DNA of 64,000 bases from Impatiens glandulifera (Eukaryota; Streptophyta; Magnoliopsida; Ericales; Balsaminaceae). Below, piece after piece: positions 35,101 to 39,264 of this stretch. The stretch covers positions 50,403,113 to 50,467,112 of the forward strand of contig NC_061866.1 in NCBI RefSeq assembly GCF_907164915.1. Reading direction: 5' to 3'. Every line of letters begins with the position of its first letter. Position 1 is the first letter of the stretch. The position numbers and the translations under genes are program-made. The notes under the pieces were generated by a model, which saw only the letters and a list, made by a program, of their open reading frames with translations, was not told the origin of the DNA and did not search any database.

Positions 35101-38100
35101 CCTCCAACAGTATGTATCAATTTATTTCATCTTTCATAATTTATAGTTGTAAAGTCTAGTGACATACTCTGCGATCTTACTGTTTTTGTTTCTTGTAGGA
35201 GAAAGATGTCTTGAGAACATTTAATGAACAACTCGTAAAGGACATGCAAATTGTTTTAACTCGAAGTAACATAACTGAACTACAAAAGGTACAAACAAAA
35301 GTACTGTCTATGCAATTATTAACAAAAATATGCATTTTCTTGCTAAGGTTCGAGATTAACTAAGGGAGGAGGATTGCTTTTTTCAGGTTCTTGAAAAACA
35401 TGATTTGACATGCATGGATCTATTAGATGTAGTTGATAATGGTCATGTGATACTTAACAAGCCAAGTAAGAATTTTTTTTTTCTCTCGCAAGAAGTCTTG
35501 ATCATGTTAACCATGCAACTTTTTTTTTTTCAGAAGCTGAAAAGGTAGTTGGTTGGGCAAAAAATCTCTACTTAGCATCTTGTATTGAACCTTCAGTAGA
35601 AGGAGAACGATTGAATCTGCCTCTTAAATGGTAAAAATATGAGAGAATTGTTTGATATTTTATTCACAAATTATTTGTGAGATTTTTTTAATAGAGAGAA
35701 AGAGATACTTTTGAGATATTATTCTCATAATAAGTTGCAAGAATTTATATAAATATTATTGATGATTTTCTTTTTAACCAACTTATTCTAATATAAATGA
35801 GAAATAAATAAGAGAATAAGATCAACTTGCCAAGTTTAATACTTATATATTCCTGCTTAAATTTATAACAAAGAATACTTGACATCTTCTGTAGCATTGA
35901 GACTGCAATAGTGAGACTTATGAGTCACAAATCGATAAAACCTGCACGAAATCTCAAGGTACATACTACACATACCTGTAATGTAAATGAATCTTAAATT
36001 GAATTTTTCAGGATTATATATACTAGTTTATAAATTCATGCAGAAGGCTGAGAAGCATTTTCTCTCAGCCGTTGTAAGTCCAAGTGAAATTGGGATTACG
36101 TTTGATGATGTTGGTGCTCTGGAAGAAGTAAAACAAGCATTAGATGAACTTGTCATTCTCCCAATTAGGAGACCTGAGCTTTTCTCTCATGGAAATTTGG
36201 TAAAGGTACTAAAATAATTAAACTACTGCTACTAGTATTGTTTCATTAGTCTATTTCAACATAATACTCCCATTTAAAAAAGAAAAGAAAAAAGGAATAT
36301 ATTTTTGTTTGTTTGTTGTAGCCTTGCAAGGGGATATTACTTTTTGGACCTCCTGGAACTGGGAAAACCCTTATTGCTAAGGCACTTGCAACTGAAGCAG
36401 GCGCACATTTTATCAACATAACTGCCACAACTTTATTATCACCGGTAACTAACTGTTGAATCTATTTTTTATTTTGTTTTTATGGATTTCCCATAATAGG
36501 AAGATGACAACTAATGAACACTTGTGTATATGAATAATGTTTGCAGACATTTGGTGTAAGTGAGAGACTTGTAAAGGCCATGTTCTCATTTGCGGACAAA
36601 ATAGCACCTGTAATTATTTTTCTTGATGAGGTGGGTGGTGGATCTGTTTGACAAAATTCATTTACAATGATCACACTTTTTTACAATTTGAATGATTAAT
36701 AATACAACTTATATGATCTTATATTTCACAAGTCTTATGTTGTTATATATATTTCATATAGATTGACTGTTTACTTGGGGCCCGTGGATCCAATGAAGGG
36801 GAAGCAACTAGAAATATAAAAAACGAGCTTATGACAGCTTGGGATGGAATGATGTCAAAAGAAAACCAAAGAATCATAGTTATTGGTGCCACCAACCGCC
36901 CTTTTGATCTTGATGATGCAGTAGTTCGTCGTCTTCCTAGAAGGTACTTTCTTTACATTCTCTTATTTTTTCTTTTCTTTTCTTTCTAATGAACTGGACT
37001 GGACTGTTTTACAGGATATATGTAGACCTCCCTGACGAGGAGAATCGTGTCAAGATACTCAAAATTCTCCTAGCTAAGGAGAATATAGAACCAGGATTTT
37101 CATTTGAAAAACTTGCTGCGGCCACTAACAAATATTCAGGGAGTGACTTAAAGGTTAAGTACTATCAACTCAACTAGAGAGTACTGATATTATATGGCTT
37201 TATCTTATTATTCTTTTGTTAATTTTTTTTACAGAACCTTTGTACTGCTGCTGCATATAGACCTGTGCATGAAATTATAGAAGAAGAGAAGAAGGTGGTG
37301 GTAAATCATCATGCCTTTGTTCTTCTGTTTGGACTCCTGTCAAATGATTTTCATTGTATTTGACAGTTTGTGTCCTCCCCATTTATTATCATTTTTGTTT
37401 ATCAGGGCCTAAGAAGTGATTCTGCATCGTCAACTGTCCCTAGACCACTCAATTTGGATGACTTCATTCAGTCCAAGGATAAAGTATTAGCATTAAATTA
37501 AATTACATTGCATGCATAATTTGATGTTTACCATTCGTTTGTGTTCTAATTAATCTAAATAAATAAATGGGGGGTAGGTGGTGCCTTCGGTTGCATGCGA
37601 TGAATTCACCGAGCTTAAAAAGTGGAATAAGAAGTTTGGACAAGTCAAAAGCAGGAGTAAGAAGCAACCAGATTTGCAAGATCTTGTTGAGGATGAGTAC
37701 GAGAAGAATTTTGTCTCTTCCGTTTTACCTCCAGGTGAAATTGGGATTAAATTTGATGATGTTGGTGCCCTGGAAGAAGTAAAACAAGCATTAGATGAAC
37801 TTGTCATTCTCCCATTGAGGAGACCTGAGCTTTTCTCTCATGGAAATTTGTTAAAGGTAGTAAAATATAATTAAACTACTACTGGTACTCTTTTGTTTCA
37901 TTAGTCTATTTTATAATAATACTATACTTTGTTTGTTTATTAGCCTTGCAAAGGGATATTACTTTTTGGACCTCCTGGAACTGGAAAAACCCTTATTGCT
38001 AAGGCACTTGCAACTGAAGCACGCATCAATTTTATCAACATAACTGCCTCAACTATTTTATCAAAGGCAACTAACTGTTGAATTTAATTTATTTAATTTT

Positions 38101-39264
38101 TATATATTTTCCATAATAGGAAGATAACAACATTTGTGTATATGAATAATGTTTGCAGTGGGTTGGTGAAAGTGAGAAACTTACAAATGCCCTGTTCTCT
38201 TATGCGAAGAAACTAGCACCTGTAATTATTTTTGTTGACGAGGTGGGTGGTGGGTCTGTCTGTCTGTCTTACAATTTGAATGATTAATAATACAACTCAT
38301 ATGGTTTTATATTATGTTGTTGTTATATTTAATAATACAGATTGACGGTTTACTTGGAGCCCGTAGATCCTCTACACATGAATCAAATAGAAATGTAAGG
38401 AACGAGTTTATGACAGCTTGGGATGGATTGGTGTCAAAAGAAAACCAAAGAATCATAATTATCGGTGCTACCAACCGCCCTTTTGATCTTGATGATGCAG
38501 TAGTTCGTCGTCTTCCAAGAAGGTACTTTCTTTACATGCTCTTCTTTTCTTTTTATTTTCTTTCTAATGAACTGTTTTACAGGATATATGTAGGCCTCCC
38601 AGATGCTGGCAATCGTGTCAAGATACTCAAAATTCTCCTAGCTAAAGAAAATATAGAACCAGGATTTCAGTTTGAAAAACTTGCCAAGGCCACCAACGGA
38701 TATTCAGGGAGCGACTTAAAGGTAAATTATTATTATTATTATTTGTTTTTATACCAACTAAAGTAAGTAATTACATTCTCTTATAACTTGTTAAATCTGC
38801 AGAACCTTTGTGTTGCTGCTGCATATAGACCAGTGCAAGAAATATTAGATGATGAAGAGAAGAATAAGGTAAAATCATATACATATATAGACCTCTATTC
38901 TATTCTATTCATATTCATGATGACTTTTATTTTTTAAATTAATGATCTATCGTTTTTCAGGGCTTAACAAGTGATTCTGAGAATGTTGAAGAAATGAGGC
39001 CACTCAATTTGGCTGACTTCATTCAGTCCATGGCTAAAGTATTATATTCATGAAACTCATCTTGTTTAATTAATTTCATAATGCTTATTTTTATTATGTT
39101 TGACCCTACAAAAATAAATATAGGTGGCACCTTCGGTTGCATACGAAGCATCCAACATGAACGAGCTTCGAAAATGGAATGAAAAGTACGGTCAAGACGG
39201 AAGCAGAAAGACATCATCTTTTGGCTTTGCTAACCCATCTGAATTGTTAGCTTCTTCCGGATAG
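32116..39264 (+). CDS. AAA ATPase with tandem-duplicated AAA module (At1g50140/At3g19740-like)
   Basis: Likely a meiotic-clade (Msp1/ATAD1/spastin-like) AAA ATPase of the plant group with an N-terminal FHA-like/substrate part and a C-terminal ATPase. Twenty-nine exons: 32116-32453, 32549-32673, 32757-32851, 32957-33064, 33178-33247, 33338-33389, 33545-33630, 33803-33864, 34285-34479, 35050-35109, 35199-35288, 35387-35465, 35534-35630, 35895-35958, 36044-36205, 36322-36444, 36547-36630, 36762-36943, 37015-37153, 37235-37300, 37406-37483, 37578-37856, 37944-38066, 38159-38242, 38341-38522, 38583-38721, 38803-38868, 38961-39038, 39124-39264; they sum to 1148 residues. The N-terminus is basic and Ser-rich, perhaps a mitochondrial presequence. 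[13 protein letters not shown] and [20 protein letters not shown] are family phrases. Module 1: Walker A GPPGTGKT (about 570-577), Walker B VIIFLDE, RRLPRR. Module 2 repeats these at about 887-894, VIIFVDE, RRLPRR. Family members usually have one module. The joint between exons 9 and 10 is the least certain: a conserved stretch seems lost there. The intron after 38066 starts with GC. Confidence 0.87.
33865..34200 (+). repeat. (GTAT)84 microsatellite starting at a splice donor
   Basis: 84 perfect GTAT units run from 33865 to 34200, followed by imperfect gcatgcatgtatgc. The first unit forms the 5' splice site of intron 8 of the AAA ATPase gene (exon end AATGAG, intron GTATGT). Every unit recreates the same GTATGT donor consensus. 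The Tyr-Val-Cys-Met and His-Thr-Tyr-Ile open frames across it are artefacts of the repeat. Confidence 0.97.

What the first reader, a model, noticed from the sequence alone, without database searches (positions are those of the whole stretch)
36044..39264. In-frame tandem duplication of the AAA module makes a two-ring ATPase
Exons 15-21 and 22-28 encode two near-identical AAA modules with matching exon lengths (123, 84, 182, 139, 66, 78 in both sets). Their introns are also clearly homologous, for example both introns after the Walker A exon contain ccataataggaagat and tatgaataatgtttgcag. Exon 22 is a fusion: its first part matches the head of the final exon 29 (VPSVA...LKKWN), its second part matches exon 15 ([20 protein letters not shown]). 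The frame stays open through both copies with Walker A, Walker B and the RRLPRR arginines intact. Plant members of this family normally have one module, so this may be a new double-AAA architecture.
Basis: partly seen in the sequence, partly recalled or inferred. Interest (0 to 1): 0.75.

Follow-up and report, generated by a model that had tools for sequence, protein, structure and literature searches.

The report
Young doubled AAA ATPase gene
A Himalayan balsam gene for a protein-unfolding motor has copied its motor module in frame, so one predicted protein carries two motors in a row; the second is well conserved and the first is drifting, which may show how two-ring motors begin.

Summary
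The duplication is real. The window is, by inference, Impatiens glandulifera. A 29-exon gene (32116-39264, +) encodes 1161 aa with two complete AAA modules, joined through one contiguous fusion exon (37578-37856). An assembly artefact is very unlikely: a second double-module gene lies about 99 kb away, inverted, about 4% diverged, with the same junction and an open frame. A third copy, on a 38-kb contig, has three 1-nt deletions. The genome also holds the ordinary single-module gene (LOC124925464). On a tree the two modules are sisters beside that protein, so the doubling is recent and local. Double-module protein models from three Lamiales form another clade with a fusion at the same place, so it probably arose more than once. 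'Two-ring ATPase' is only partly supported. Between the two loci module 2 is under purifying selection (omega 0.19); module 1 is not distinguishable from neutral (0.74; window branch 0.97). Module 1 here has lost the pore-loop Lys-Trp that is invariant in 35 aligned relatives. Coding indels stay in frame (10 of 10 against 7 of 32 in introns), and in the window copy module 2 has no start codon of its own, so it is probably translated through module 1. No protein record for the locus appeared; expression is unproven.

The parts
32116..39264 (+). whole gene model, 29 exons, 1161 aa, plant Msp1-like AAA ATPase with two C-terminal AAA modules
   Evidence: splice-site and frame model; start by comparison with sister copies and single-copy gene
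32116..35958 (+). exons 1-14: N-terminal half, ending at the linker before module 1; predicted degenerate AAA-like fold in the family
   Evidence: matches P0004 exon by exon; fold comparison on P0004, sequence profile test inconclusive
35005..35109 (+). exon 10 with the ancestral acceptor TTTCTGCTTCAG|CCT; the preceding 39-nt microexon of the single-copy gene is not used
36044..37483 (+). exons 15-21: AAA module 1 (Walker A at residue 585)
36436..36573 (+). pore loop 1 of module 1, split by intron 16 (36445-36546): [10 protein letters not shown], Lys-Trp lost
37578..37856 (+). exon 22, fusion exon: head of the last exon, then exon 15 sequence, no intron between
37670..37679 (+). junction AGATTTGCAA, best matched by the 3' end of intron 14 of the single-copy gene (AAATTTGCAG, 8 of 10), acceptor AG now AA and coding
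   Evidence: the end of exon 14 matches 5 of 10
37742..39038 (+). AAA module 2 (exons 22-28, Walker A at residue 900)
38058..38185 (+). pore loop 1 of module 2, split by intron 23: [10 protein letters not shown], Lys-Trp kept
38067..38158 (+). intron 23 with GC donor (AAG|GCAACT), the only non-GT donor of the model
39124..39264 (+). exon 29, last exon and stop

Best explanation
This is a young chimeric gene of the plant Msp1-like AAA family. An illegitimate or unequal exchange between the last exon and the 3' end of intron 14 (or the start of exon 15) of a single-module ancestor copied the AAA module in tandem and in frame, turning the junction into one coding exon (shown by sequence; the exact exchange is inferred). 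The doubled gene was then copied to three places. The product is one chain: N-terminal half, AAA module 1, a 61-residue linker, AAA module 2, tail. I infer that module 2 is the working substrate-threading ATPase, and that module 1 is a passenger or regulatory ring that can bind ATP and help assembly but, in the window copy, can hardly grip substrate because pore loop 1 lost its Lys-Trp. Shown: duplication, shared junction, intact motifs, unequal selection, in-frame indels. Inferred: expression, single transcript, ring assembly, function.
For: Gene model open over 29 exons. Sister gene B on the same contig, inverted, same junction, one open frame. Modules 1 and 2 are sister clades (each 100/99, together 100/99) beside P0004/P0003 (clade 99/95). 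A-B counts: module 2 11 syn / 7 nonsyn, omega 0.19; module 1 14/33, 0.71; N-terminus 21/45, 0.60; linker 3/3, 0.24; tail 9/7, 0.20. Codon ML: module 2 tips 0.19 (differs from 1, p=0.0006), module 1 tips 0.74 (not different from 1, p=0.39), module 1 vs module 2 p=0.019, window module 1 branch 0.97. Exons 1-21 vs 22-29 differ in syn/nonsyn, p=0.004; exons before the linker pooled still omega 0.65, p=0.037. A-B coding indels 10 of 10 multiples of three against 7 of 32 in introns. No in-frame ATG in the window's exon 22-24 and a TAG just upstream.
Against: No transcript evidence at all. No protein record above 76% identity to the double region appeared among the listed best 120, although the species has a RefSeq-type annotation; so the locus may be annotated as a pseudogene, left out, or have a product outside the length windows. 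Exons are no more conserved than introns overall between A and B (95.7 vs 96.0%). Copy C has three 1-nt coding deletions, in module 2 and the tail. The tail has an oddly high dS (0.33). The GC donor and lost microexon could mark decay. A module-1-skipping transcript (exon 14 to 22) would keep frame.
Confidence: 0.5

Rival explanations
1. Decaying gene: the double gene is transcribed little or not at all, and the purifying signal in module 2 is a remnant or an effect of copying between paralogues.
For: Neutral-like module 1 and weakly constrained N-terminus, destroyed pore loop, GC donor, lost microexon, frameshifted copy C, a decayed single-module relative L038 with a broken splice site and a 1-nt insertion, no protein record found.
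Against: Frame intact in two loci, 10 of 10 coding indels in frame, module 2 omega 0.19 since the A-B split with p=0.0006.
Confidence: 0.22
2. Cassette module: the locus mainly makes a single-module protein by skipping exons 15-21 (828 nt) or 22-28, or exon 23 skipping at the GC donor makes a Walker-A-less module 2 as a regulator.
For: Exons 15-21 and exon 23 are multiples of three with matching phases; selection differs sharply between the parts; one GC donor, conserved in three copies.
Against: No transcript data; module 1 and the N-terminus still keep frame and all catalytic motifs; constraint in the N-terminus is as weak as in module 1, which skipping of module 1 alone does not explain.
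Confidence: 0.14
3. True double-ring ATPase in which both modules hydrolyse ATP and pull.
For: Walker A, Walker B, sensor 1 and arginines intact in both modules; sister copy B keeps Lys-Trp in module 1 pore loop (SKWSGESERL).
Against: Window module 1 lost Lys-Trp and is not distinguishable from neutral.
Confidence: 0.12
4. Assembly artefact or mis-joined tandem genes.
For: Repeats of this kind can be collapsed or doubled by assemblers; the Lamiales and Brassica double models could be such.
Against: Units differ by about 12% in module exons (87.8% identity); same junction at three places with 1-4% divergence; junction lies inside a contiguous exon.
Confidence: 0.02

Closest known systems
Plant Msp1-like single-module AAA family (I. 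glandulifera P0004/LOC124925464 and relatives, about 1000 aa)
   Same: Exon-intron layout, N-terminal half, linker, AAA core and lid, C-terminal tail; closest protein in sequence and on the tree
   Different: One AAA module, GT donor after the Walker A exon, 39-nt microexon used, invariant pore loop SKWFGDAEKL
Yeast Msp1 / animal ATAD1 (Thorase)
   Same: Best single-ring relatives of module 2 among solved structures: 249 bits for 5w0t and 9kmd over residues 4-288; top Foldseek hit of P0004 is Thorase 8vxt, 42% identity
   Different: Small proteins with one AAA module and a membrane anchor (recalled); [quoted passage not shown]
Two-ring AAA proteins Cdc48/p97, Rix7, AFG2
   Same: Two AAA modules in one chain; one often takes the main motor role (recalled)
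   Different: Old, strongly diverged D1 and D2; here the modules are 88% identical in DNA and share introns
Double-module models from Paulownia fortunei (P0001), Castilleja foliolosa (P0121), Striga hermonthica (P0153)
   Same: Same family, second AAA fused after the ...WN(E/D)(Q/R)(Y/F).. tail, linker of the exon-15 type; Castilleja and Striga also lost Lys-Trp in one module
   Different: Separate, fast-evolving Lamiales clade (99/99); known only as protein predictions, Striga second module truncated
Rice lrd6-6 mutation in Os06g03940 (AAA ATPase)
   Same: Intragenic tandem repeat inside a plant AAA gene, in frame (1446 bp genomic, 534 bp in cDNA; PMC5019419, passages seen)
   Different: A loss-of-function mutant with a partial repeat, in a gene placed with VPS4/SKD1 by its authors; not a complete second module

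Membership tests
Plant Msp1-like AAA family (P0004 type) | Homologous N-terminal half and exon layout | tested here: met
   N-terminal exons align to P0004 and its gene L037
Plant Msp1-like AAA family (P0004 type) | AAA core with Walker A, Walker B, sensor 1, RRLPRR | tested here: met
   intact in modules 1 and 2
Plant Msp1-like AAA family (P0004 type) | Pore loop 1 Lys-Trp-aromatic-Gly | tested here: not met
   module 1 of the window copy PTFG; module 2 keeps KW but has Val for Phe
Plant Msp1-like AAA family (P0004 type) | Exactly one canonical AAA module | tested here: not met
   two; 235 of 245 relatives have one Walker A motif
Msp1/ATAD1 membrane-protein extractase | Best sequence match among solved single-ring AAA structures | tested here: met
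   5w0t, 9kmd, 9l3m at 248-249 bits in one stretch; Cdc48 D2 alone 180 bits
Msp1/ATAD1 membrane-protein extractase | Membrane anchor and extraction of tail-anchored proteins | not testable with these tools
   no localisation or activity data
Two-ring (type II) AAA ATPases | Two complete AAA modules in one open frame | tested here: met
Two-ring (type II) AAA ATPases | Both rings under functional constraint | tested here: inconclusive
   module 2 yes; module 1 not different from neutral, but in-frame indels
Two-ring (type II) AAA ATPases | Stacked hexameric rings | not testable with these tools
   needs purified protein

The most novel reading that the evidence does not exclude
Double-module Msp1-like ATPases have arisen independently in Impatiens and in Lamiales by joining the last exon to the same linker before the AAA module, and in each lineage one ring is losing its substrate-gripping pore loop while keeping its ATP site: a repeated, very young version of the D1/D2 division of labour seen in old two-ring motors.
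Probability: 0.3. Interest if true: 0.7.

Novelty: new variant of a known kind. Interest (0 to 1): 0.5.

Why it matters
Two-ring AAA motors such as p97, NSF and Pex1/Pex6 are ancient, so how the second ring first appeared and specialised cannot be watched there. Here the two modules still share introns (85.6% in four pairs) and differ at synonymous sites by only about 0.20. Two gene copies and a single-module homologue in the same genome serve as controls. With the Lamiales models it offers a natural experiment on what a duplicated ring does first: the data suggest that one ring keeps threading and the other loses its grip. My search of held papers for Impatiens with AAA ATPase and duplication gave no paper, and searches on duplicated or degenerate AAA modules listed none on this architecture as far as titles and abstracts show.

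Tried and rejected
Frameshift in exon 10: my first model (acceptor 34932) gave TGA and broken frame; rejected after the single-copy gene showed 35005 as the ancestral acceptor.

Separate second gene starting at exon 22: in the window copy no ATG in frame before exon 25 and a stop directly upstream. In copy B there is one in-frame ATG near the end of exon 22, before Walker A, so the argument is weaker there. AATAAA/ATTAAA hexamers do occur in intron 21 (4 places), so early polyadenylation is not excluded. The bacterial promoter and terminator scan is not meaningful for a plant gene.

Origin of the junction: intron-14 tail (8 of 10 bases) preferred over exon-14 end (5 of 10). The stretch is short. 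The decayed single-module relative L038 has exon 14 and exon 15 joined without an intron, which leaves open an origin from an intron-less paralogue; L038's place relative to the duplication is unresolved.

Whether the transposon captured the gene before or after the duplication could not be settled. Brassica, Musa, Camellia, Macleaya, Heracleum and Lupinus double models are from other subfamilies or look like gene models joined from near-identical tandem copies; not used as support for recurrence. Dating from dS was not attempted beyond saying it is young.
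Full report
What it is. The window is C5:50403113-50467112 of a 654-Mb genome. The finding lies in a 29-exon gene on the + strand, 32116-39264, which reads 1161 aa without a stop. All introns have GT-AG ends except intron 23, which has GC-AG.

Observation. The two units 36044-37483 and 37578-39038 match exon by exon, and their introns match as well: ungapped repeat pairs 80-92%, four intron pairs 85.6%, module exons 87.8%. 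Pfam finds two AAA and two lid stretches. Exon 22 starts like the last exon ([22 protein letters not shown] against [24 protein letters not shown]) and goes on as exon 15, without an intron. At the join the window reads AGATTTGCAA|GATCTTGTTGAGGATGAG; the single-copy gene reads, across the end of intron 14, AAATTTGCAG|AATCTCGCCAAGGATGAG. So the last bases of an intron seem to have become coding and the acceptor AG became AA. Ten bases are few, so this is a preference, not a proof (8 of 10 against 5 of 10 for the end of exon 14).

Not an artefact. Gene B lies at about C5:50328998-50335744 on the other strand, about 99 kb away 5' end to 5' end. It has the same 29 exons and the same fusion exon, 95.7% identical in exons and 96.0% in introns, with one open frame. 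Copy C, on the 38,250-base contig C694, is 98.8% identical to B in exons, with three single-base deletions in exons 22, 26 and 29. They fall in runs of two or three equal bases, so they may be sequencing errors or decay; I cannot tell. The similarity of A and B continues into the 3' neighbour up to about 40508.

Origin. On a tree of 44 modules, window module 1 groups with B and C module 1, window module 2 with B module 2, both groups are sisters (100/99), and the single-module Impatiens proteins stand next to them (99/95 for the whole group). So the tandem duplication came first, after the split from the single-copy gene, and the copying of the doubled gene came later. Synonymous distance is about 0.20 between modules and 0.06-0.08 between A and B in the N-terminus and modules.

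Recurrence. Of 245 proteins retrieved by three searches (best 120 listed in each), 10 have two GPPGTGKT motifs and 235 have one. The searches used double-module queries from Impatiens and Paulownia, so doubles are over-represented. Three of the ten, from Paulownia, Castilleja and Striga, belong to this subfamily and form one fast-evolving Lamiales clade (99/99) apart from Impatiens. Each continues from the last-exon tail straight into the exon-15 linker. These are gene predictions whose DNA I could not see. The other seven were set aside (see tried and rejected).

Selection. A-B comparisons are lopsided: exons before the inter-module linker give 35 synonymous and 78 nonsynonymous changes, linker, module 2 and tail 23 and 17 (p=0.004); the latter part has omega 0.22 (p=1.3e-6), the former 0.65 (p=0.037). 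A codon model on 230 codons of the five modules gives module 2 tips 0.19 (different from 1, p=0.0006), module 1 tips 0.74 (p=0.39), the single-copy branch 0.14, the stem of module 1 1.3 and of module 2 0.57, neither stem different from 1. Module 1 against module 2 tips: p=0.019 (Fisher on counts 0.026). Indels between A and B are multiples of three in 10 of 10 coding cases, 9 of them in exons 1-21, and in 7 of 32 intron cases. So translation through the N-terminus and module 1 has mattered, even though residue changes there are barely constrained.

Motifs. Of 159 module positions invariant in 34 relatives, window module 1 has changed 28, B module 1 30, and both module 2 copies 21. The window's module 1 is singular in pore loop 1: K753P, W754T, D757V, A758S and K760R in P0004 numbering. 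In 255 modules of the 245 proteins, only four lack Lys followed by an aromatic residue there; three of the four are in double-module proteins (Castilleja module 2, Striga module 2, Heracleum module 1) and one is in a single-module model with an odd sequence (assignments by reading). Copy B keeps Lys-Trp in module 1, so this loss is recent and belongs to the window locus.

How it may work. In AAA motors the pore-loop aromatic residue grips the substrate, and the Walker motifs power the stroke (established knowledge, recalled). I therefore propose that module 2 does the threading and module 1 has become a passenger or regulatory ring that may still bind ATP and help the chain assemble. Expression is not shown. 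In some searches no listed protein exceeds 76% identity to the double region, and the species' only records listed are the single-copy protein and a similar transcript-derived one. The window gene could be unannotated or annotated as a pseudogene.

Exon phases. Exons 15-21 together (828 nt), and exon 23 alone (123 nt), could be skipped without loss of frame, and exon 23 carries the GC donor. Regulated skipping is possible but untested.

Family context. Module 2 alone is nearest to Msp1 and ATAD1 among solved single-ring structures. A model of P0004 (mean pLDDT 58.6) aligns over residues 151-941 to p97 from the start of D1 to the end of D2. The N-terminal half may thus be a degenerate AAA domain; the profile test did not confirm it.

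Captured fragments. The same gene has been picked up by a non-autonomous inverted-repeat element. Of 40 scored places, 6 are the three double genes and 34 are other places; I fetched 12 of the 34. In these, pieces from exon 13 or 15 to the start of exon 17, and from exon 28 or 29 to about 39800, lie between ends GGGAAATTTGAGGAAATGACCC.... Target-site repeats of 8-9 bases are readable in five of them (by eye). The captured pieces form one group on a tree (96/95), which suggests one capture.

Verdict. It is a new variant of a known kind: a young, probably recurrent, tandem duplication of an AAA module in a plant Msp1-like ATPase, with unequal fates of the two modules.

Noticed in passing
L013-L024 (12 of 34 dispersed places): Non-autonomous inverted-repeat element, about 3.1-4.4 kb, ends GGGAAATTTGAGGAAATGACCC, 8-9 base target-site repeats in five copies read by eye, carrying introns and exons of this ATPase gene: Pack-MULE-like gene capture (superfamily not proven).
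   Followed up: partly
L038 with L041 (C1:149099300-149103300): Decayed single-module relative of the doubled lineage: N-terminus missing, exon 14 and 15 joined without intron, exon 17 with an extra base and damaged acceptor.
   Followed up: partly
window 33865-34205: Long (ATGT)n microsatellite filling most of intron 8 of the ATPase gene.
   Followed up: no
window 40375-40836 (-): ORF resembling plastid ribosomal protein bS21 (recognised from memory); similarity between the two double-gene loci extends into it.
   Followed up: no
window 25275-25450 (+): Exon-like stretch resembling RAD50 ([31 protein letters not shown]; recalled), followed by about four tandem copies of a roughly 450-700 base repeat up to 27.8 kb.
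   Followed up: no
window 1686-5055 (-): Open frames resembling parts of a gypsy-type retrotransposon (recalled).
   Followed up: no
window 57146-57790 (+): ORF with a glycine-arginine-rich start resembling fibrillarin (recalled).
   Followed up: no
window 39124-39264: Last exon differs more between loci A and B (88.7%) than its neighbours, with high synonymous distance (0.33); unexplained, perhaps local copying between paralogues.
   Followed up: no
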